Below are positions 1 through 7,499 of a stretch of 7,499 nucleotides of DNA, in pieces. The position numbers were made by a program, and so were the translations under genes. The stretch's first letter is position 1. Each line of letters begins with the position of its first letter. Origin of the DNA: Christensenella sp. UBA7597 (GTDB lineage: Bacteria; Bacillota; Clostridia; Christensenellales; Borkfalkiaceae); the NCBI GenBank assembly GCA_002474405.1, contig DLQW01000063.1, positions 1-7,499 of the forward strand, in the 5' to 3' direction. The notes below the pieces were generated by a model. It saw only the letters and a list, made by a program, of their open reading frames with translations. It made no database searches and had not been told where the DNA came from.

Positions 1-310
1 CGCCCGCGCCGCCGCCGCCGATAATCAGAACGTCTACGTCGTATTTCACCTTGCTTAAATCTACTTTTTCGCTTAAAATGCGGGGCGTGCCCTGCAACAG
101 CGCGGCAAGTTCTTTCAATACGGGAGCGCCCGCGTTGGCGCCTACCTGTAAATTCGTGTATGCGGAACGGATATAATCGGGGTGGAACGCCGCCAGAAGC
201 GCGTCCTTTTCGTCCGCGGTGAGCCGGCGCAAATCTTTGCCCGTTCTTTCCGGGCGCGTCTCTTCCACTCTGGTTAACGATTTAAGCTGTTCTTCGCTGT
301 ATGAAAACAT
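1..310 (-). CDS. Fumarate reductase/succinate dehydrogenase-type FAD flavoprotein, N-terminal part only
   Basis: Only the first 103 residues are in the window; the gene continues past the left edge. They end in a Rossmann FAD-binding motif, DVDVLIIGGGGAG (residues 91-103), preceded by Lys/Tyr residues as in the FrdA/SdhA/TfrA flavoproteins. Before this motif is a soluble, charged region of about 90 residues, which is much longer than the 5-15 residues normal in FrdA/SdhA; no signal peptide or membrane segment is seen in it. The ATG at 310 is preceded by AAGGAG at 10 nt, so the extension is translated; a GTG at codon 88 has no such site. The gene follows the iron-sulfur subunit by 33 nt with no hairpin between, so the two are probably co-transcribed and form a pair. 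The substrate (fumarate, another enoate or a different acceptor) lies in the missing part; the call could also be a more general FAD-dependent oxidoreductase. Confidence 0.75.
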   Translation of the reverse strand, partial: MFSYSEEQLKSLTRVEETRPERTGKDLRRLTADEKDALLAAFHPDYIRSAYTNLQVGANAGAPVLKELAALLQGTPRILSEKVDLSKVKYDVDVLIIGGGGAG

Positions 311-320
311 TGTTTCGTTA

Positions 321-326
321 CTCCTT
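321..326 (-). promoter_or_regulatory. Ribosome binding site of the flavoprotein gene
   Basis: On the minus strand this reads AAGGAG, 10 nt before the ATG at 310. It decides the start: it supports translation of the unusual 90-residue N-terminal extension rather than an internal start near the FAD motif. Confidence 0.7.
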
Positions 327-343
327 TTCTCTCTGTCGCGCAA

Positions 344-1018
344 TTACTTCTCTATCACGCGTTCGTTGTAAAGCTTTTTCAGCTCGTCCGCCGTTTTTTC
401 TTTCAGAGCGGCGATCGCGTCGGTATACTTGCCGTCCTCCACCTCTTTCACGCGGCGGAGAAGATGCTCGCTTTCCGGCGTTAAATACTTCCCCGTCAGA
501 CGGCGGGCAAGCAGCGCCACCTGCGGATGAGAAATGCCCGCGGGGCAACGCGAAGAACACGCGCCGCACATGACGCAGTCGAAGCTTTCTTCGGCGCACT
601 TTTCGTATTCGCCGCGCTGCGCGTAAGCGATGTACTGCATTACGTTCAGGCTCTGCGTGCACGCCTTCGTGCAGGCGTTGCAGCCGATGCAAGCGTAAAT
701 TTCGGGATACAGCTGCATCATAATCTGCTGCGTGGGCTTGATTTTTTCGATATCGTACACCTGCTTTACCAGCGGGAAGAACGGAAGCGTTGCCACAAAC
801 ATGCCCTCTTCCACCTGCGTCTGGCAGGCAAGGCAGGTTTTCAGTTCCTGCTTCCCCGCGATTCTGTAAAAGCACGCGCACGCGCCGCAGAATCCGTTAC
901 GGCAGCCGCAGCCGCGCACAAGCCGATACCCCGCGTATTCCATCGCTTTCATTATCGTAAGACTTTCGGGCACGGAATATTTCTTGCCGAAAAGCCACAC
1001 GTTTACCATCTTTTCCAT
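344..1018 (-). CDS. TfrB/FrdB-like iron-sulfur subunit (2Fe-2S plus two 4Fe-4S)
   Basis: This 224-residue protein should carry electrons to the flavoprotein encoded next. Residues 1-80 form a plant-type 2Fe-2S domain with Cys39-x4-Cys44-x2-Cys47-x14-Cys62 (extra Cys at 37, 49 and 65). Residues 105-165 hold two CxxCxxCxxxC motifs: Cys110/113/116/120 and Cys148/151/154/158 followed by Pro. Two full 4Fe-4S motifs resemble HdrC and thiol:fumarate reductase TfrB, whereas classical SdhB/FrdB has 4Fe-4S plus 3Fe-4S. The C-terminal HdrB-like CCG domain of methanogen TfrB is absent; instead the protein ends in a charged helical tail. The ATG at 1018 has AGAGGT 8 nt upstream; Met4 has a poorer site. 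It lies 37 nt after flxA and 33 nt before the flavoprotein gene. No membrane-anchor gene is seen, so the pair is probably soluble. Family call is firm; substrate is not known. Confidence 0.88.
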   Translation of the reverse strand: MEKMVNVWLFGKKYSVPESLTIMKAMEYAGYRLVRGCGCRNGFCGACACFYRIAGKQELKTCLACQTQVEEGMFVATLPFFPLVKQVYDIEKIKPTQQIMMQLYPEIYACIGCNACTKACTQSLNVMQYIAYAQRGEYEKCAEESFDCVMCGACSSRCPAGISHPQVALLARRLTGKYLTPESEHLLRRVKEVEDGKYTDAIAALKEKTADELKKLYNERVIEK

Positions 1019-1055
1019 TTGCTTTTACCTCTTCTTCGTTTCTCGCTTTTGCGGC

Positions 1056-1898
1056 TTAATACTCGTCGGGCAGCTCGTCCAGCTCATCCATACGGAATAC
1101 CGGTCCGTCCTTGCACACGTATTTATCGCCCACGTTGCATCTGCCGCATTTGCCGATGCCGCACTTCATACGCATTTCCAGCGTGGTGTAAACGCGGTCT
1201 TTCTTGAAGCCTTCCTGCAACAATTCCGCCAGGGTGAATTTAATCATAATCGGGGGACCGCACAATACCGCCGTGGCGTTCGTATCCACGTTCAGTTCTT
1301 TCACGTACGCGGGCACAAAGCCTACGTGCCCGTCCCAGCCTTCCTGCGCGCGGTCGATCGTCAGGCACACGCGGAAGCCTTTTTCTTTTTCCCATTCGTT
1401 CTGAATTTCGGCGATGTCTACAAGATCGTCGGCGCTGCGCGCACCGTAAATAATCGTTACGTCGCCGTAATTTTCACGTTTCGCGCGCACATAATCGATT
1501 ACGCTGCGAAGGGGCGCCAGACCGATGCCGCCCGCGATGAACAGCAGGTTCTTGCCCTTGAAATCGTCGCCTTCCACGGGGAACGGTCTGCCGTAAGGTC
1601 CTCTCACGGTGATCGTGTCGCCCGCCGACAAATCGTGAATCGCCTGCGTTACGCAGCCGCAACGCTTGATGGAAAATTCCATAAACTCTTCGTTCGTGGG
1701 CGAAGAGGTGATGGAAAACATGCACTCGCCCGCGCCGGGAATGGATACCATCGCGCACTGACCGGGCTTATGAATAAACGGCTTTTTGCCCTCCGGCGTA
1801 ACCACGCGGAACGTTTTTACGTCCGGCGTATCGGTACGCACGTCGGTTACCACGCACACGGCGGGCACAAGGTTTTCTTTTTCGTTTACGTTTTCCAT
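1056..1898 (-). CDS. flxA: FlxA-like NAD(P)H-binding FAD/2Fe-2S oxidoreductase subunit
   Basis: A 280-residue protein of the ferredoxin-NADP reductase superfamily, in the branch with PyrK, AsrB and sulfhydrogenase gamma subunits. The FAD-binding barrel covers about residues 10-105 (FSITSSP at 61-67, then RGPYGRPFP at 99-107). The nucleotide-binding half has GGIGLAPLR at 123-131, YGAR at 151-154 and VLCGPP at 211-216. A C-terminal 2Fe-2S site has Cys246, Cys251, Cys254 and Cys262. In Flx-Hdr complexes this subunit is the NADH entry point, passing electrons singly to the 4Fe-4S subunits. The start at 1898 is chosen because AAGGAGG lies 10 nt before it; an in-frame start at 1970 would only add residues inside the upstream gene. 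It begins 2 nt after the upstream stop, so translation is probably coupled. NADH versus NADPH preference cannot be read with confidence. Confidence 0.9.
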   Translation of the reverse strand: MENVNEKENLVPAVCVVTDVRTDTPDVKTFRVVTPEGKKPFIHKPGQCAMVSIPGAGECMFSITSSPTNEEFMEFSIKRCGCVTQAIHDLSAGDTITVRGPYGRPFPVEGDDFKGKNLLFIAGGIGLAPLRSVIDYVRAKRENYGDVTIIYGARSADDLVDIAEIQNEWEKEKGFRVCLTIDRAQEGWDGHVGFVPAYVKELNVDTNATAVLCGPPIMIKFTLAELLQEGFKKDRVYTTLEMRMKCGIGKCGRCNVGDKYVCKDGPVFRMDELDELPDEY

Positions 1899-1900
1899 GC

Positions 1901-2950
1901 TTATTCGCCCTCCTTGCCGTCTTTCGAAAATTCTTTGATGACTTTCACGATGTTCAAATGCTGCGGGCATTTTTCAACGCATCTGCCGCAGCCCACGCAC
2001 GAATACGTGCCGCCGTAGCGCTTGGGGTAGTACACAAGTTTGTGCATGAAACGCTGACGGAAGCGCTGCGTCTGCGTGGTTCTCGGATTGCCGCCCGCCA
2101 TCTGCGTGAAATCGGAATACATGCACGAATCCCAGCAGCGGAAACGGATTACGCCGTCTTTCGCTTTGAAATCGCGGATATCGAAGCACTGACAGGTGGG
2201 GCACACGAACGTGCACGCGCCGCAACCGAGGCAGCCCTGCGAAAGTTTCTGCCACTTCTCGTCGGCAAACGTTTCTTTCATATCCGATTTGAACGGCGTT
2301 AAATCAAGGTTTTTAAACGGCAGTTTTTCAAAGCGTTCTTTCGCCGCTTTCTGCTCCGCAGCCACCGTTTTTTCGTCCGTTTTCTGCGCGTCTTTCAGCT
2401 TTCCGCCCAGATCGCCCAGCGCCGAGAAAAGCGTTTCGCCCTTTTCCGTATTCGCGTCGAGGTACAGATTTTCCGCCGTAAGATACGCCGTAATATCGCC
2501 CTGCGGCTTTGTGGCGTCCAGCCCGAACACGGGGCAGAAGCACGCCTGATTCGGCTTGAAGCAGGCAAGCGTTACGATAATCGCCGCCTCTCTTCTGTGC
2601 GCGTAATAAGTATCTTTCGGGTCGTTCAAAAACACGTTGTCCAGCACTTCGAACGCCTTGAAATCGCAGGCGCGCACGCCGAACAGCACAAACGGATCGC
2701 GCTTTTTCGCACTGTCGAAAATCTGCCACTTGCCCTCTTTCTTTTCAAAGCGCATCATCTCTTCGCTTTGCGGGAAGAACAGATCTTTGGGAGATTTCAC
2801 CGTTTTCAGGCTGTTTAAATCTACGTTTACGCCCTCTTTATACGCCGCGAAGTTGGTCTCCGTGCCGTCGGATACGGGCAGATACAAGGGATATTTTTCG
2901 CCGATCGCGTTGTACAGCGCGTTCAGATTTTCAATCGCTATCTTTTTCAT
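1901..2950 (-). CDS. flxB: FlxB-like 4Fe-4S protein of the AsrA/sulfhydrogenase-beta family
   Basis: A 349-residue soluble protein that should relay electrons between FlxA and the Hdr part. The N-terminal two thirds carry features of the AsrA/HydB-type family: FGVRACD at 90-96, an acidic/RR stretch near 105-120, and Cys130, Cys137 and Cys139 (ACFCP). A spacer rich in Lys, Glu and Ala covers about 185-215. The C-terminus has two 4Fe-4S motifs, Cys240/243/246/250 (followed by PTCQC, Cys253 and 255) and Cys318/321/324/328 followed by Pro; Cys272 and Cys276 lie between. The ATG at 2950 overlaps the upstream TGA by 4 nt (ATGA) and has GGAGG 10 nt before it, so the longer in-frame start at 3109 is rejected. 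AsrA and sulfhydrogenase beta subunits likewise pair with a FlxA-like partner, which fits the position beside flxA. The B letter follows gene order and is less certain than the family. Confidence 0.82.
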   Translation of the reverse strand: MKKIAIENLNALYNAIGEKYPLYLPVSDGTETNFAAYKEGVNVDLNSLKTVKSPKDLFFPQSEEMMRFEKKEGKWQIFDSAKKRDPFVLFGVRACDFKAFEVLDNVFLNDPKDTYYAHRREAAIIVTLACFKPNQACFCPVFGLDATKPQGDITAYLTAENLYLDANTEKGETLFSALGDLGGKLKDAQKTDEKTVAAEQKAAKERFEKLPFKNLDLTPFKSDMKETFADEKWQKLSQGCLGCGACTFVCPTCQCFDIRDFKAKDGVIRFRCWDSCMYSDFTQMAGGNPRTTQTQRFRQRFMHKLVYYPKRYGGTYSCVGCGRCVEKCPQHLNIVKVIKEFSKDGKEGE

Positions 2951-3903
2951 AAAACGTCGCCCTCCGTATACGAGGTAAGCGGCGTTTTGCCTTCCGCCTC
3001 TTCGCCCGCCTGAAATTCGCCGTATTTCGTATCGATGTCCTTGATGAATTTGCGGTTTAAAAGGTGCAGAGGAATGCCCTGCGGGCATACCCGCGAACAC
3101 TCTCCGCAATCGGTGCAGCGCCCCGCCACGTGGAACGCGCGGATTACGTGATACAGCTGTTCTTCGAACGACGTATCGTTCGCCTTTGCCGAAATGCCCG
3201 ATTCGGGATTATCGAACACGCACTTCACGCACGTGCACGCGGGGCATACGTTGCGGCACGCGTTGCAGCGGATGCAGCGCGAAAGTTCTTTGCGCCAGAA
3301 CGCGTAACGTTCCGCCGCAGACATTTTTTCCAGCGCTTCCACGCCGGCGAATCTGTCGCTGCCCGTTTCAATCGGATCTTTCAGAATAATCGTTTCGTCG
3401 CTTGCCACGTGCTGTTTGCCCTTGCAGGCAAGGCATTTATCCAGAAGCACCGAAAGGCGTTCCGCTTGTTTTTTGCCGCTTTCCGTAACCAGTTCCAGCG
3501 TTTTCGTATCGTCCGTTTCGTTGATGGCAAGCACGCTTTCGCCCGCCGCCTTTTCGGCTTTTTTATAATCGACTTTGCCGCGGCACTCCACCGCGATCAC
3601 GCGGATTTTATCGCGCGCCACGCGATGTTCTTTTACCAGTTCGTTGAAAGAATAGGTATCGCACGGCTTCAAAAACACCGCCGTTACGCCCTCTTTTTTG
3701 GAAATTTCCACCAGATATTTCGAAAGATTCGCACCGCAGAAATAATCGTACGTGAAATCTTTCAGCTGCTCTTCGGTTTCGAAGAACGCGGGCGAAACGT
3801 CGTAGGAAAATTCGCCCTTTCTCCAGCCGATCACGCGCGCGACTTCGCCGCTTTTCAAAAGCTCTTTCGCGCGGGATAAACATGCGTTATACAAATCAGT
3901 CAT
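2947..3903 (-). CDS. flxC: FlxC-like 4Fe-4S dicluster electron-transfer protein
   Basis: A 318-residue soluble iron-sulfur protein. The N-terminal 200 residues form an alpha/beta region with FLKPCDTYSFNEL (77-89), reminiscent of F420-hydrogenase beta/FdhB-like proteins, and a CLAC pair at Cys157/Cys160. The C-terminal part holds Cys210/213/216/220-Pro, then an unusual run of further cysteines at 223, 225 and 228, and a second motif Cys263/266/269/273-Pro. The arrangement (a PCD or ACD motif, then two C-terminal ferredoxin sites) parallels the neighbouring FlxB-like protein without obvious close sequence identity. It starts at 3903, 8 nt inside the end of flxD, with GGGAGG 8 nt upstream, and its TGA overlaps the flxB ATG. 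It probably links FlxAB to the FlxD adaptor. The family assignment rests on gene order and cysteine layout; a nucleotide- or flavin-binding role of the N-terminal region cannot be excluded. Confidence 0.78.
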   Translation of the reverse strand: MTDLYNACLSRAKELLKSGEVARVIGWRKGEFSYDVSPAFFETEEQLKDFTYDYFCGANLSKYLVEISKKEGVTAVFLKPCDTYSFNELVKEHRVARDKIRVIAVECRGKVDYKKAEKAAGESVLAINETDDTKTLELVTESGKKQAERLSVLLDKCLACKGKQHVASDETIILKDPIETGSDRFAGVEALEKMSAAERYAFWRKELSRCIRCNACRNVCPACTCVKCVFDNPESGISAKANDTSFEEQLYHVIRAFHVAGRCTDCGECSRVCPQGIPLHLLNRKFIKDIDTKYGEFQAGEEAEGKTPLTSYTEGDVL

Positions 3904-4408
3904 TTTCCTGTCCTCCCGCGATAAACTCGCTTTCGCTCATGTCCTTGCAACGGATGTCGGCGATTCTTCTGTTTTCGCCCAGCGCCGTTACCTTGCCCAC
4001 GAAATCGTTCATCACCTGCGAAAAGCGCGCGCCTTCCGCGGCGGAAACCCATTCCACTCTCATTCTTTCGCGCTCGATGCCCATATAATCAAGGAAATTG
4101 AACAGCAACGCCATTCTTCTGCGCGTGTAATAGTTGCCCGTTACGTAATGGCAGTCGCCGGGGTGGCAGCCGCACAGAATCACGCCGTCCGCGCCCTGCT
4201 GAAACGCTTTCAGCACGAACGTGGGGTTCACGCGGCACGAGCACGGCACGCGGATGATTTTTACCGACGCGGGATAGGAAAGCCGCGAAGAGCCTGCAAG
4301 ATCGGCGCCCGCATACGAGCACCAGTTGCAGCAAAACGCCACAATTTTAGGCACAAACGCGCCATTTTCGCCGCCGTTTACGGCAGTCGTATTTTCTACG
4401 CTTTGCAT
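3896..4408 (-). CDS. flxD: FlxD/MvhD-type iron-sulfur adaptor to HdrA
   Basis: A 170-residue protein of the MvhD/FlpD family, the 2Fe-2S subunit that docks a hydrogenase, formate dehydrogenase or NADH module onto HdrA. Diagnostic motifs are FCCNWCSYAGADLAG (25-39), RVPCSCRVNPTFVLKAFQQG (53-72) and CGCHPGDCHY (79-88). Cysteines are at 26, 27, 30, 56, 58, 79, 81, 86 and 154. The second motif has Cys58 where the MvhD consensus usually has glycine (C-T/S-G-R). The first 18 residues and the last 20 are variable extensions. The start at 4408 has GGAGGTG 8 nt before it and overlaps hdrA by 13 nt; an in-frame start at 4525 would lie deep inside hdrA. Position directly after hdrA fits the known physical contact with HdrA. 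With no hydrogenase gene in the window, and flxABC next door, the electron input is most likely NADH. Confidence 0.92.
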   Translation of the reverse strand: MQSVENTTAVNGGENGAFVPKIVAFCCNWCSYAGADLAGSSRLSYPASVKIIRVPCSCRVNPTFVLKAFQQGADGVILCGCHPGDCHYVTGNYYTRRRMALLFNFLDYMGIERERMRVEWVSAAEGARFSQVMNDFVGKVTALGENRRIADIRCKDMSESEFIAGGQEND

Positions 4409-6387
4409 ATACTTTCCACCTCCGACATAATTTGCTTCGTAGAGAATCCTTTCAGATCCATCGCGCCCGAAGGGCAGGTTACCGTGCAGGCGCCGCAGCC
4501 CTGGCACACCGCCGGGTTCACGCACGCCACGCGGCGCGTTTCCGTCTTGCCGCCGCCGATTCTGAACTGCTTTTCTTCATACGTGATGGCGCCGTACGCG
4601 CATACGTTGGCGCACTGTCCGCAGCCGTTGCACATGTTTTCGTTCGCGCCCGCCACGCAGGGGTTGGTTTTCAGTTCGTTCTTCACAAGCAAGCCGATCA
4701 CTTTCGCCGCGCATGCCGAAGCCTGCGATACCGTTTCGGGAATGTCTTTCGGTCCCTGACAAACACCCGCGAGATACACGCCCGCCGTGGGGCTTTCCAC
4801 GGGGCGCAGCTTCGCGTGAGATTCGGTGAGGAAATTGTTCGTATCGATGCTGGCGGTTAAAAGCGTGGCAACCTTTCTTACGGAAGGTTCCGGCTCGATC
4901 GCCGTGGCAAGCACCACAAGGTCGGAAGCGATTGTAACCTGCTCGCCGTCGATGAGGTTTTCGCCCTGCACCATCAGCTTGCCGTTTTCGCCGTATACCT
5001 TGCCCACCATGCCTTTGATGTAATCCACGCCGTACATTTCCACGGCGCGGCGGTAGAATTCGTCGTAGTTCTTACCGGGCGTACGCACGTCGATATAAAA
5101 TACGTGCACCTCGGTATCGGGGTATTTTTCGCGGATGAGCATCGCGTGCTTCGCCGTGTACATGCAGCAGATTTTGGAGCAGTACGGCTTGCCGCAACCC
5201 GATACGTCGCGCGAGCCTACGCACTGGATGAAAGTAATCACTTTCGGGTGCGTGCCGTCCGAAGGGCGCAGAAGCGTGCCGCCCGTAGGTCCCGCGGCGT
5301 TCATCAGCCGTTCCAGTTCCAGCGAGGTAATCACGTCCTTTTCGGTGGCGTAGGAATATTCGTTGAAGTTTTCCAGCGAAATCGGCTTGAAGCCCGTAGC
5401 CACCACGATGGCGCCGTACTGCCGCTCGATAAACGTATCTTTCATTTCGTAATCGATCGCGTGCGCGCCGCAGATTTTGGAGCAGAGTCCGCATTTGCCC
5501 GTCTTTAATTTAATGCACTGCTGCGGGTCGATGACGGCCACGTTGGGAATCGCCTGCGCGAACGGAATATAAATCGCCGTGCGCGTGTTCAACCCCATGT
5601 TGAATTCGTTCAGTCCCTTTCTCGAAGGGCACTTTTCCATACACGCTTTGCAGCCCGTGCACTTCGTTTCGTCTACATAGCGCGCTTTTCTGCGGATTTT
5701 TACGGTGAAGTTTCCAACGAAACCTTTCACCGCTTCGATTTCCGAATAGGAAAGTATTTCGATTTTATCGCTCTGCGCGCAGTCCACCATTTTCGGCGTT
5801 AAAATACAAGCCGAACAGTCCAGCGTGGGGAACGTTTTATCCAGCTGCGCCATTCTGCCGCCGATGGTGGCGTTCTTTTCCACGATGTCTACGGGGAAAC
5901 CCGCTTCCGCGATGTCCAGCGCCGCCTGAATGCCCGCGATGCCGCCGCCGATGACGAGCGCGCGCTTCGTAACGGGGCTTGTCCCCTGCGTAAGCGGCGC
6001 GTTCAGCTTCACTTTCGCAATCGCCGTGCGCACCAGAATCACGGCTTTTTCCGTGGCTTCGTCCATGTTCTTGTGAATCCACGAACAATGTTCGCGCAGG
6101 TTCGCCACTTCCACCATGTACGCGTTCAAGCCCGCCTGCGCCGCCGCCTTTTTAAACGTTGCTTCGTGCATGCGCGGCGAGCAGGAACCGATGACGATTC
6201 CCGTCAGCTTCTGCTCTTTGATCGCGTTCTGGATGAGTTGCTGACCGTTTTCCGAGCACATGTACGGATAATCCGCGGCAAACACCACGCCGTCCTCGTG
6301 CTTCACGGTTTCCACCACTTTTTTCACGTCCACCGTCGCAGCGATGTTCGTTCCGCAATGACAGATAAATACTCCTATTCTTTGCAT
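4396..6387 (-). CDS. hdrA: Heterodisulfide reductase subunit A, flavin-bifurcating subunit
   Basis: A 663-residue HdrA, close to the usual length of the stand-alone family, with no fused MvhD. The N-terminal domain has Cys9, Cys11, Cys44, Cys69 (SCSPRMHE) and Cys101. The FAD Rossmann motif VIGGGIAG is at 145-152, with GGRMAQLD at 177-184, then the HdrA-specific TLDCSACILTPKM (188-200). An inserted ferredoxin domain has Cys243/246/249/253 and Cys291/299/302/306. FIQCVGSRD at 387-394 and a Cys cluster at 398-408 follow. The C-terminal ferredoxin domain has Cys586/589/592/596 and Cys628/631/634/638. By family knowledge the FAD splits electron pairs from FlxD between ferredoxin and HdrC/HdrB. The start at 6387 gives the canonical MQRIGVFICHCG beginning; upstream in-frame codons offer no ATG. 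Its ribosome binding site is weak (GGGTAG at best), unlike the other genes. All expected cysteines seem to be present; no selenocysteine codon is needed. Confidence 0.96.
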   Translation of the reverse strand: MQRIGVFICHCGTNIAATVDVKKVVETVKHEDGVVFAADYPYMCSENGQQLIQNAIKEQKLTGIVIGSCSPRMHEATFKKAAAQAGLNAYMVEVANLREHCSWIHKNMDEATEKAVILVRTAIAKVKLNAPLTQGTSPVTKRALVIGGGIAGIQAALDIAEAGFPVDIVEKNATIGGRMAQLDKTFPTLDCSACILTPKMVDCAQSDKIEILSYSEIEAVKGFVGNFTVKIRRKARYVDETKCTGCKACMEKCPSRKGLNEFNMGLNTRTAIYIPFAQAIPNVAVIDPQQCIKLKTGKCGLCSKICGAHAIDYEMKDTFIERQYGAIVVATGFKPISLENFNEYSYATEKDVITSLELERLMNAAGPTGGTLLRPSDGTHPKVITFIQCVGSRDVSGCGKPYCSKICCMYTAKHAMLIREKYPDTEVHVFYIDVRTPGKNYDEFYRRAVEMYGVDYIKGMVGKVYGENGKLMVQGENLIDGEQVTIASDLVVLATAIEPEPSVRKVATLLTASIDTNNFLTESHAKLRPVESPTAGVYLAGVCQGPKDIPETVSQASACAAKVIGLLVKNELKTNPCVAGANENMCNGCGQCANVCAYGAITYEEKQFRIGGGKTETRRVACVNPAVCQGCGACTVTCPSGAMDLKGFSTKQIMSEVESICKA
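4417..4423 (-). promoter_or_regulatory. Ribosome binding site of flxD
   Basis: Minus-strand GGAGGTG, 8 nt before the ATG at 4408 and inside the 3' end of hdrA. It fixes the flxD start and the 13 nt overlap with hdrA. Confidence 0.75.
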
Positions 6388-6462
6388 TTTTTCTACCCGT
6401 TTATATTTTGTCTTTCGTTGTGATTTTTTGTCTTTTTCGTTACGTTACGCCCCGCAGCCCGC
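6388..6462 (-). other. hdrC-hdrA spacer, A-rich leader with imperfect direct repeat
   Basis: The longest gap in the window. On the minus strand, a GC-rich start after the hdrC stop is followed by about 55 purine- and A-rich bases leading to the hdrA ATG. An imperfect direct repeat lies in it: AACGAAAAAGACAAAA (6441-6426) and AACGAAAGACAAAA (6419-6406), differing by two A residues and starting 22 nt apart. No hairpin, terminator or clear -35/-10 pair was found, and the hdrA ribosome binding site is poor. It may be a translational enhancer or a weak internal promoter, but nothing proves either. Confidence 0.45.
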
Positions 6463-6837
6463 TCAGCCGTTAAACTTCCTGAATACGGAAACAAACAGCT
6501 GCTGGGGGGTATGTTCTCCCACGACGGGCGGAATTTCCTCCGCCGCGATATGGTTGTTTTCTTTCATGCACACCTGCGTTTTCCGCACCGCTTCTACCAC
6601 CGAAACGGGCGATACGCCGCGGGGACAACGCTCCGCGCACGCATAGCAGGTAAGGCAATCCCAAGCCTTTTTATCGGCTAACAGTTCTTCCAGTCTGCCG
6701 CGCACCAGCCGCGAAACGAATGCGTGCGGCTGCACGTTTGCGGGGCACCGCCCGGAACATTTGCCGCATTTCATACACGCGTAGATGTTCGTGCCGCAAA
6801 TTTCCCGCAAATTTTCAAGCCGTTCTTCCCGCGTCAT
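6463..6837 (-). CDS. hdrC: Heterodisulfide reductase subunit C
   Basis: A short 124-residue HdrC, an alpha-helical ferredoxin with two 4Fe-4S motifs: Cys21/24/27/31-Pro (CMKCGKCSGRCP) and Cys61/64/67/71-Pro (CLTCYACAERCP). It should pass electrons from HdrA to the catalytic HdrB. The C-terminal stretch from about 90 to 115 contains AAEEIPPVVGEHTPQQLF, a tail of the kind that contacts partner subunits; a single Cys90 lies outside the motifs. The ATG at 6837 overlaps the hdrB stop (ATGA, 4 nt) and has AAGGAGG 6 nt upstream, so the longer in-frame start at 6933 is rejected. The pair hdrB-hdrC is translationally coupled. Length is less than in methanogen HdrC (about 180-190 residues), but similar to many bacterial ones. 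No membrane segment is present. Confidence 0.93.
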   Translation of the reverse strand: MTREERLENLREICGTNIYACMKCGKCSGRCPANVQPHAFVSRLVRGRLEELLADKKAWDCLTCYACAERCPRGVSPVSVVEAVRKTQVCMKENNHIAAEEIPPVVGEHTPQQLFVSVFRKFNG

Positions 6838-7499
6838 ACGTTGCCTCCTTCCGCCGCGCCGCACGCCGCGCAATTTTCGCCCGCCGCCGCGCAGGTTACG
6901 CAGTTTTCGTACTCCGCGCCCAGCGCCTCGCAAATCAGCGCGGGCAGGTCGATTACTTTCAGCGCGCCGCCACCGTTTTCTTTCAGATTATAATGGCAAA
7001 GCGGGCACACCGTAGCGATTTCCGCCGCGCCCGCGGCTGCCGCGTTTTCTAAAATTTTGCGGCTCTTCGCCTTCGTCAATTCCGGATTTTTCACCGACTG
7101 ATACGCGCCGCAGCATTCGTTTCTGAACGCGTACGTTACGGGCGTGCCGCCCAGCGCTTCGATGAATTTTTCCATCAACGACGGATTTTCGGGGTTATCG
7201 AACGCCATTACCTTCGAAGGGCGCAACAAAAGGCAGCCGTAATACGCCGCGATTTTGCGGTTCAGCGGCTTCACCACCTTGCTTTTAATCGTTTCGAACC
7301 CCACTTCGTCTCGCAGGAATTCAAGATAGTGCATCACCCGCGTTTCGCCGTTATACGGCGTTTCGAAGCCGAGATACGTATTCGCCGCGCGCGAAAAATC
7401 TCCGTCCGTTTTAATGTCCTCGTTCGTCCGCTTGATTACGTTGTGGCAGGCGGAACAAAGCGTAAGCAGTTTGCCGCCGTGTTCTTTCGCGTATTCCAG
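6834..7499 (-). CDS. hdrB: Heterodisulfide reductase subunit B, C-terminal 221 residues
   Basis: The frame is open to the right edge, so the start is outside; HdrB is usually about 290-300 residues, so roughly 70 or more are missing. HdrB is the catalytic subunit that cleaves disulfides with non-cubane 4Fe-4S clusters held by two CCG domains. Numbering visible residues from the edge, the end of the first CCG domain is LCSACHN (Cys15, Cys18). The second is Cys89, Cys129-Cys130 (NECCGAYQ) and Cys165/168 (CPLCHYN), a spacing of C-x39-CC-x34-CxxC close to the family pattern. A further Cys190 lies in DLPALICEALG, a typical HdrB ending. Beyond it is an unusual tail of about 25 residues, rich in Ala, Gly and Cys, with CxxC-x6-CxxC (Cys200, 203, 210, 213). 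The native acceptor in bacteria is usually unknown. An internal GTG at 7337 is not the start, since conserved sequence continues upstream. Confidence 0.93.
   Translation of the reverse strand: MEYAKEHGGKLLTLCSACHNVIKRTNEDIKTDGDFSRAANTYLGFETPYNGETRVMHYLEFLRDEVGFETIKSKVVKPLNRKIAAYYGCLLLRPSKVMAFDNPENPSLMEKFIEALGGTPVTYAFRNECCGAYQSVKNPELTKAKSRKILENAAAAGAAEIATVCPLCHYNLKENGGGALKVIDLPALICEALGAEYENCVTCAAAGENCAACGAAEGGNV
6844..6850 (-). promoter_or_regulatory. Ribosome binding site of hdrC
   Basis: Minus-strand AAGGAGG, 6 nt before the ATG at 6837, inside the last codons of hdrB. It fixes the hdrC start and the ATGA overlap. Confidence 0.75.

What the first reader, a model, noticed from the sequence alone, without database searches (positions are those of the whole stretch)
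1..7499. FlxABCD-HdrABC operon joined to a fumarate-reductase-like flavoprotein pair
The sequence shows a complete NADH-to-HdrA electron path (hdrBCA, flxD, flxC, flxB, flxA) followed, only 37 and 33 nt later, by a TfrB/FrdB-like iron-sulfur subunit and the start of a FrdA-like flavoprotein. Known Flx-Hdr complexes bifurcate electrons from NADH to ferredoxin and a mostly unidentified high-potential acceptor. Linking a soluble fumarate-reductase-type module suggests the acceptor here is an organic double bond or a related compound, giving an NADH-driven reductase that also yields reduced ferredoxin. The coupling is inferred from gene order only.
Basis: partly seen in the sequence, partly recalled or inferred. 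Interest (0 to 1): 0.7.

Follow-up and report, generated by a model that had tools for sequence, protein, structure and literature searches.

The report
Predicted ferredoxin-coupled fumarate reductase operon
A bacterium of the Clostridia and its relatives, mostly from animal guts, carry a fixed row of genes predicted to build one soluble enzyme that would use NADH to turn fumarate into succinate and would reduce ferredoxin at the same time; the same idea was already proposed in print for a similar gene row in another clostridium, so this is a new example of a known, still untested kind.

Summary
The minus strand carries hdrB(5'-cut)-hdrC-hdrA-flxD-flxC-flxB-flxA-frdB-frdA(3'-cut), with gaps of 37 and 33 nt before frdB and frdA. 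The window is a whole contig. In the same genome, contig C80 holds the rest of frdA, and C62 holds mdh, fumC and the start of hdrB. In 80 related contigs flxA-frdB is adjacent in 78 of 78 testable cases; 39 show all eleven genes mdh-fumC-hdrBCA-flxDCBA-frdBA. The fumarate-reductase catalytic residues are kept, with Asn at the FAD-linking His. FrdB and HdrB weakly match the two ends of one protein model, TfrB. Over cut-off, DsrC and MenD occur in 0 of 41 genomes, and RnfC and MqnA in 0 of 25 of the genus. Fumarate is the likely acceptor and HdrB the likely donor to FrdB. My searches found no enzyme assay. Against: 13 of 29 FrdB loci elsewhere in the phylum show no hdr gene. Verdict: new member of a known, unproven kind.

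The parts
6834..7499 (-). hdrB, 5' end cut by the contig end (221 aa seen); CCG protein, heterodisulfide reductase B type
   Evidence: Pfam CCG, NCBIfam CoB_CoM_SS_B below cut-off; ten cluster Cys kept in 87 of 87 rows
6463..6837 (-). hdrC, two 4Fe-4S motifs
   Evidence: eight Cys kept in 87 of 87 rows
4396..6387 (-). hdrA, FAD and Fe-S subunit, predicted bifurcating site; the only HdrA found in this genome
   Evidence: full-length match to solved HdrA 5odc, E 1.8e-205; one full match in the own genome
3896..4408 (-). flxD, MvhD/FlpD-type 2Fe-2S subunit
   Evidence: Pfam FlpD, E 1.1e-55
2947..3903 (-). flxC, 4Fe-4S subunit
   Evidence: Pfam Fer4 families, position and conservation; the name is by place in the row
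1901..2950 (-). flxB, AsrA/sulfhydrogenase-beta-like Fe-S subunit
   Evidence: below NCBIfam cut-offs
1056..1898 (-). flxA, FAD/NAD(H)-binding subunit, predicted NADH entry
   Evidence: Pfam NAD_binding_1, FAD_binding_6, DHODB_Fe-S_bind
344..1018 (-). frdB, iron-sulfur subunit (one 2Fe-2S, two predicted 4Fe-4S), no CCG domain
   Evidence: twelve cluster Cys kept in 120 of 120 rows
2..310 (-). frdA, first 103 residues of the flavoprotein; residues 102-534 are on contig C80 of the same genome
   Evidence: catalytic motifs present in the C80 piece

Best explanation
This contig carries nine genes (the two outer ones cut) of a row that is conserved in its relatives and that likely encodes a soluble, electron-bifurcating NADH:ferredoxin,fumarate reductase. 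Predicted path: NADH gives electrons to FlxA; they pass FlxB, FlxC and FlxD to the flavin of HdrA, where each pair would be split. One electron would go to ferredoxin, the other through HdrC and HdrB straight into FrdB and on to the FAD of FrdA, which would reduce fumarate to succinate. HdrB would serve as a relay, so that HdrB plus FrdB do the work of the single protein TfrB. The neighbours mdh and fumC would make the fumarate from oxaloacetate. With no RnfC over cut-off in this genus, reduced ferredoxin would likely leave as hydrogen or serve biosynthesis. Shown here: gene content, order, conservation, catalytic residues, cluster ligands, and the lack (over cut-off, draft genomes) of DsrC, MenD, MqnA and RnfC in the genus. 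Inferred: the complex, the split, the direct HdrB-FrdB transfer, the direction and the fate of ferredoxin.
For: Fixed row: flxA-frdB 78 of 78, frdB-frdA 73 of 73, fumC-hdrB 56 of 57, mdh-fumC 38 of 54 testable contigs; 39 of 80 show all eleven genes. Co-occurrence of FrdB and HdrA in 61 genomes: 37 both, 2 HdrA only, 0 FrdB only, 22 neither. Catalytic residues kept in FrdA; Asn at the FAD-linking His in 109 of 109 rows, which argues for fumarate reduction rather than succinate oxidation (rule recalled). The TfrB model NF004898 matches FrdB at profile positions 19-101 and HdrB at 356-465, both far below cut-off (37.2 and 25.9 bits against 385). hdrC-hdrB-frdB without a neighbouring HdrA in 3 of 29 phylum loci. 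Flx-Hdr beside FrdBA in three separate places of the FrdBA tree and in three gene orders. Unlinked FrdBA copies sit by fumarase, malic enzyme or pyruvate carboxylase. No DsrC, no quinone synthesis genes over cut-off in the genus.
Against: Gene order and sequence only. 13 of 29 FrdB loci elsewhere show no hdr gene in the stretch, so FrdBA can work with other donors. HdrB keeps all ten Cys of a disulfide-reducing HdrB, so disulfide chemistry is not excluded. In the Riftia symbiont tfrAB did not follow the expression of the hdr-flx cluster (passage, PMC11636981). In P. thermosuccinogenes Na2S had the opposite effect to H2 (PMC7282089). 13 of 25 genus genomes have an RnfC-like match below the cut-off.
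Confidence: 0.6

Rival explanations
1. Flx-Hdr reduces a diffusible disulfide, and the resulting dithiol (a DsrC-like protein or small thiol) feeds FrdBA; no direct complex.
For: HdrB keeps all ten cluster Cys in 87 of 87 rows. A DsrC route is named as one option for the Riftia symbiont (passage, PMC11636981).
Against: No DsrC over cut-off in 41 genomes, one weaker match. FrdB has no CCG domain with which TfrB oxidises thiols (TfrB role recalled).
Confidence: 0.18
2. FrdBA is an ordinary soluble fumarate reductase with its own donor, co-expressed with Flx-Hdr only because both belong to succinate fermentation; Flx-Hdr serves another acceptor.
For: 13 of 29 FrdB loci elsewhere in the phylum show no hdr gene in the stretch; three of these stretches have little room upstream (L168, L180, L196).
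Against: 78 of 78 adjacency, no FrdB without HdrA in 61 genomes, and repeated pairing with Hdr genes in different orders.
Confidence: 0.16
3. FrdA acts on another compound (L-aspartate, another enoate) or the enzyme runs as a succinate oxidase.
For: L-aspartate oxidase structures are among the matches and share the catalytic residues (recalled).
Against: Best NCBIfam model is TfrA (341.9 bits, below its cut-off of 718). mdh and fumC head the row. Asn at the FAD-linking position argues against succinate oxidation (rule recalled).
Confidence: 0.06

Closest known systems
'Succinate operon' of Pseudoclostridium thermosuccinogenes (PMC7282089, passages and section 8 seen; it cites a 2019 preprint by Koendjbiharie and van Kranenburg, seen only as a reference)
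   Same: Module order by locus tags: fumarate hydratase, Flx-Hdr (seven genes), fumarate reductase (two genes), one hypothetical gene; same proposal that succinate formation is tied to ferredoxin reduction
   Different: Here mdh precedes fumC in 38 of 54 testable contigs; other lineage; sequences of the two were not compared
flxABCD-hdrABC with tfrAB and korABCD in tubeworm symbionts and Thioflavicoccus (PMC6315080, PMC11636981; passages seen)
   Same: Flx-Hdr interspersed with a fumarate reductase; direct electron transfer proposed there
   Different: There it is part of a carbon-fixing reductive TCA cluster with 2-oxoglutarate synthase; here it stands with mdh and fumC only
FlxABCD-HdrABC (Ramos et al. 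2015, seen only as a reference)
   Same: The seven subunit types
   Different: A fumarate reductase is part of the row here; the acceptor in Desulfovibrio is thought to be a disulfide (recalled)
Thiol:fumarate reductase TfrAB of methanogens
   Same: FrdA scores best against TfrA; FrdB and HdrB match the two ends of TfrB weakly
   Different: FrdB lacks the CCG half, which is a separate HdrB here; all scores below cut-off
Complex II (quinol:fumarate reductase, FrdAB of E. coli)
   Same: Catalytic residues
   Different: No covalent-FAD His, longer N-terminus and shorter C-terminus of FrdA, predicted 4Fe-4S in place of 3Fe-4S in FrdB, no quinone synthesis genes over cut-off in the genus

Membership tests
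FlxABCD-HdrABC | All seven subunit types in one row | tested here: met
   hdrB is cut in the window, its start is on C62
FlxABCD-HdrABC | NADH-dependent ferredoxin reduction | not testable with these tools
   needs an assay
'Succinate operon' type (fumarase, Flx-Hdr, Frd) | Module order fumC, Flx-Hdr, frd on one strand | tested here: met
   for relatives; own genome over three abutting contigs; published order
'Succinate operon' type (fumarase, Flx-Hdr, Frd) | Sequence kinship with the P. thermosuccinogenes proteins | not tested
Fumarate reductase flavoprotein (FrdA) | Catalytic His/Arg/Glu/Thr set | tested here: met
   own piece on C80 carries the motifs
Complex II (quinol-linked) | His for covalent FAD | tested here: not met
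   Asn in 109 of 109 rows
Complex II (quinol-linked) | Quinone in the cell | tested here: not met
   MenD 0 of 41 over cut-off, weaker matches in 30; MqnA 0 of 25 in the genus, 3 of 41 in all; draft genomes
Thiol:fumarate reductase (TfrAB) | TfrB with CCG thiol-oxidising half | tested here: not met
   no CCG match in FrdB; TfrA and TfrB scores below cut-off
HdrB | Two CCG motifs with ten Cys | tested here: met
   87 of 87 rows; the window holds the second motif and part of the first, C62 the start
L-aspartate oxidase | NCBIfam nadB cut-off | tested here: not met
   273.5 bits against 452.75

The most novel reading that the evidence does not exclude
Fumarate is the true high-potential acceptor of this Hdr-type bifurcase: HdrB is a pure electron relay into FrdB, giving quinone-free and Rnf-free fumarate respiration that stores energy as reduced ferredoxin in a large clade of gut Clostridia. 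In other Bacillota the same FrdBA is wired to a double-HdrA set beside 2-oxoglutarate synthase and succinyl-CoA ligase, so that both products of one bifurcation feed one CO2-fixing step.
Probability: 0.35. Interest if true: 0.72.

Novelty: new member of a known kind. Interest (0 to 1): 0.5.

Why it matters
Here the gene row points to one acceptor, fumarate, and the genus appears to lack things that blur the question elsewhere (quinone synthesis, DsrC, Rnf over cut-off), so direct wiring becomes testable. If true, succinate formation in many gut and rumen Clostridia would yield extra reduced ferredoxin, hence likely hydrogen, which would bear on hydrogen and methane budgets in animals. The FrdB is common: 446 of 481 candidate stretches in the species-level genome collection encode a relative of it; the gene row itself was examined in the best 80 of these.

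Tried and rejected
Quinol-linked complex II: rejected, because the covalent-FAD His is missing and quinone synthesis genes are not found over cut-off in the genus. L-aspartate oxidase: set low, because FrdA is far below that model's cut-off and an iron-sulfur partner, mdh and fumC are in the row. Thiol:fumarate reductase membership: rejected on the missing CCG half of FrdB; kept as an analogy.

AlphaFold model of FrdA: mean pLDDT 64.8 from a shallow alignment of 17 close relatives, with long stretches under 50; too weak for a fold search, so none was run and nothing rests on it. Promoter and terminator scan: numbers at chance level. The small hydrophobic protein behind frdA has no Pfam match in its extended reading frame and follows frdA in 12 of 72 testable contigs, so it is left out of the core. 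The mdh call rests on one residue: Arg where lactate dehydrogenases have Gln (56 of 56 rows; rule recalled). The best solved match, 1y6j, has the same Arg but is deposited as lactate dehydrogenase.

Rows dropped before counts: FrdA, FrdB, HdrB, HdrC and mdh rows covering under 85% of the reference, which excludes the window's own cut genes; matches under 60 bits were not named, which drops weak partial matches to hdrA in L170 and hdrC in L172 that one search had shown.

Full report
WHAT IS THERE. The window is a complete contig (C81, 7499 bases) of a 1.76-Mb draft genome, 86.7% complete. Two 'same genus' genomes have contigs whose lengths equal those of Candidatus Scatosoma records (G006:C13, 32626 bases; G009:C147, 16229 bases), so the genus is, or includes, Ca. 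Scatosoma; NCBI places that name in Clostridia incertae sedis. Many of the 80 listed relatives bear titles of gut samples of animals. On the minus strand lie hdrB (cut), hdrC, hdrA, flxD, flxC, flxB, flxA, frdB and frdA (cut), with the gaps given under the observation check.

BEYOND THE EDGES. In the same genome FrdA residues 102-534 lie at the end of contig C80, and mdh, fumC and the start of hdrB at the start of contig C62. The contig ends overlap by 16 bases and by 9 bases. The nearest relative (L032, FrdB 96% identical) has the row on one contig: mdh-fumC-hdrB-hdrC-hdrA-flxD-flxC-flxB-flxA-frdB-frdA and a small hydrophobic protein.

CONSERVATION. Among the 80 contigs listed from the species-level collection (the best 80 of 446 confirmed relatives of FrdB), neighbours hold as follows, each count over contigs with room to test: mdh-fumC 38 of 54, fumC-hdrB 56 of 57, hdrB-hdrC 60 of 60, hdrC-hdrA 60 of 60, hdrA-flxD 65 of 66, flxD-flxC 70 of 70, flxC-flxB 75 of 75, flxB-flxA 78 of 78, flxA-frdB 78 of 78, frdB-frdA 73 of 73, frdA-small protein 12 of 72. 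All eleven genes from mdh to frdA are seen in 39 of 80. Because the contigs were chosen by FrdB, the reverse was tested as well. In 61 genomes (37 of the genus, the window's included, and 24 others of the order) a strong FrdB match (E under 1e-70) occurs in 37 and HdrA (1e-60) in 39: 37 have both, 2 HdrA only (G007, whose match stops at a contig end, and G011, whose match stops at residue 591), 0 FrdB only, 22 neither. By family code, 6 of 25 families hold the system.

THE FLAVOPROTEIN. FrdA matches complex II, flavocytochrome c and L-aspartate oxidase structures. In 109 FrdA rows (91 from the window's order, duplicates included, and 18 from elsewhere in the phylum) the positions aligned with E. 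coli FrdA His232, Thr244, Glu245, Arg248, Arg287 and His355 never vary; Arg390 is Arg in 108 and a gap in one; the covalent-FAD His is Asn in all 109 (E. coli numbering recalled). The window genome's own piece on C80 carries the catalytic motifs. In 31 of 34 rows a pattern for the FAD-binding glycines was found, 94-98 residues from the start; three rows did not match the pattern. FrdA ends 67 residues after the last catalytic Arg, against about 212 in E. coli FrdA of 602 residues (length). So the N-terminus is longer and the C-terminus shorter than in complex II.

THE LINK. FrdB has a 2Fe-2S domain and two CxxCxxCxxxC motifs; all twelve Cys are kept in 120 of 120 rows. This predicts two 4Fe-4S clusters in place of the 4Fe-4S and 3Fe-4S pair of complex II (rule recalled). 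No CCG domain was found in FrdB. HdrB has two full CCG motifs, ten Cys in 87 of 87 rows. The TfrB model NF004898 (488 positions) matches FrdB at 19-101 (37.2 bits) and the window's HdrB at 356-465 (25.9 bits), both far below its cut-off of 385; HdrC and FlxC also touch its 4Fe-4S part. One known protein thus joins relatives of these two parts. This natural fusion, and three loci elsewhere with hdrC-hdrB-frdB and no HdrA gene beside them (L171 and L182 followed by frdA, L177 on a 3.8-kb contig), are the best sequence evidence for direct HdrB-to-FrdB transfer.

WIDER PHYLUM. In 299 genomes drawn from the phylum, 30 have FrdB at 1e-30, the window's genome included. All 29 others were fetched and sorted by naming matches of 60 bits or more: 5 with Flx-Hdr (L175, L176, L179, L191 in the order frdBA-hdrBCA-flxDCBA; L184 in the order hdrCBA-flxDCBA-frdBA), 8 with a long or second HdrA-like protein (L178, L181, L188, L189, L190, L192, L193, and L194, whose 760-aa piece is at the end of its contig), 3 with hdrBC only, 13 with no hdr gene in the stretch. 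Of the 13, L168, L180 and L196 have only 1.4-2.5 kb upstream of frdB, and one search had shown weak partial matches in L170 and L172. A quick FrdA+FrdB tree of 35 rows needs three changes for the Flx-Hdr context, and starred branches force three; the tree has long branches (L173, L183) and no bootstrap. Beside unlinked copies tested with Pfam lie fumarase and malic enzyme (L169, L170), malic enzyme (L180), a lactate/malate dehydrogenase family protein (L168) and pyruvate carboxylase (L174); beside others an FMN-binding/4Fe-4S protein (L172) and a NapC-type cytochrome (L183). FrdBA thus looks like a fumarate module that takes different electron donors.

HOST CONTEXT. In 41 genomes (25 of the genus, 16 others of the order): DsrC over cut-off 0, one weaker match; MenD over cut-off 0, weaker matches in 30; MqnA family 3, none of the 25; RnfC over cut-off 11, none of the 25, though 13 of the 25 have an RnfC-like match of about 150-190 bits below the cut-off of 246, the window's genome not among them; [FeFe]-hydrogenase domain over cut-off 38, including the window's genome. 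Controls: each search also rang in known genomes (same calls). Absence in one draft genome means little; over the genus it carries weight.

MECHANISM AND ENERGY. With textbook potentials (recalled: NADH -320 mV, fumarate +33 mV, ferredoxin about -450 mV), 2 NADH + fumarate with two electrons to ferredoxin gives roughly -43 kJ per mol fumarate, so bifurcation is feasible. The direct relay, the split and the direction are inferred.

WHAT IS KNOWN. PMC7282089 (passages and section 8) describes in P. thermosuccinogenes a 'succinate operon' of fumarate hydratase, Flx-Hdr, fumarate reductase and a hypothetical gene (perhaps a transporter), assumes the link to ferredoxin reduction citing a 2019 preprint (seen only as a reference), and reports about 4-fold higher expression under CO2 limitation, not significant for all subunits. 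It also cites H2 nearly abolishing succinate formation, which it finds in keeping, and a contrary effect of Na2S. PMC6315080 (passages) and PMC11636981 (passages) describe flxABCD-hdrABC with tfrAB and korABCD in vent symbionts; in the latter tfrAB did not share the cluster's expression pattern. Paper searches listed no paper that I recognised as an enzyme assay of such a complex or a report for this clade; I opened only the papers named here and, and only openly licensed papers are held, so this is no proof of absence.

VERDICT. Observation confirmed; interpretation supported and narrowed to fumarate; novelty limited: a new and widespread member of a kind already proposed but, as far as seen here, not demonstrated.

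Noticed in passing
L190:2972-7546: Behind a double-HdrA row with frdBA lie a 2-oxoacid:acceptor oxidoreductase alpha subunit (over NCBIfam cut-off), a 2-oxoglutarate-type beta subunit (below cut-off) and succinate-CoA ligase beta and alpha (over cut-off): succinate and reduced ferredoxin could both feed 2-oxoglutarate synthesis.
   Followed up: partly
L172:10178-11590, L183:8354-9516: FrdBA preceded by an FMN-binding/4Fe-4S protein or by a NapC-type cytochrome (with one unmatched gene between), suggesting membrane-linked versions of the same module.
   Followed up: no
L169:8622-11474, L170:7735-9712, L180:766-2100, L174:9359-12793: FrdBA copies without hdr genes stand directly behind malic enzyme (with fumarase in L169 and L170) or pyruvate carboxylase.
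   Followed up: partly
L200:3294-9011 (contig C24 of the window's genome): The two [FeFe]-hydrogenase-domain proteins of this genome flank what looks by eye like a PP2C-type phosphatase, with two thioredoxin-like 2Fe-2S proteins upstream; labels by eye, no family search run.
   Followed up: no
L032:10108-10400 and FrdA rows: FrdA has an N-terminal stretch of about 90 residues before the FAD domain in rows from all contexts, and no long C-terminal domain; it may hold FrdB or FrdA in place (guess).
   Followed up: partly
L136 (C80 of the window's genome), L032:11615-12118: A small hydrophobic protein of about 110 aa follows frdA in the window's genome and in 12 of 72 testable contigs; no Pfam match. 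P. thermosuccinogenes also has a hypothetical, perhaps transporter, gene at this place.
   Followed up: partly
L032:12244-13053: A transposase-like reading frame on the other strand lies just behind the operon in the nearest relative (by eye).
   Followed up: no
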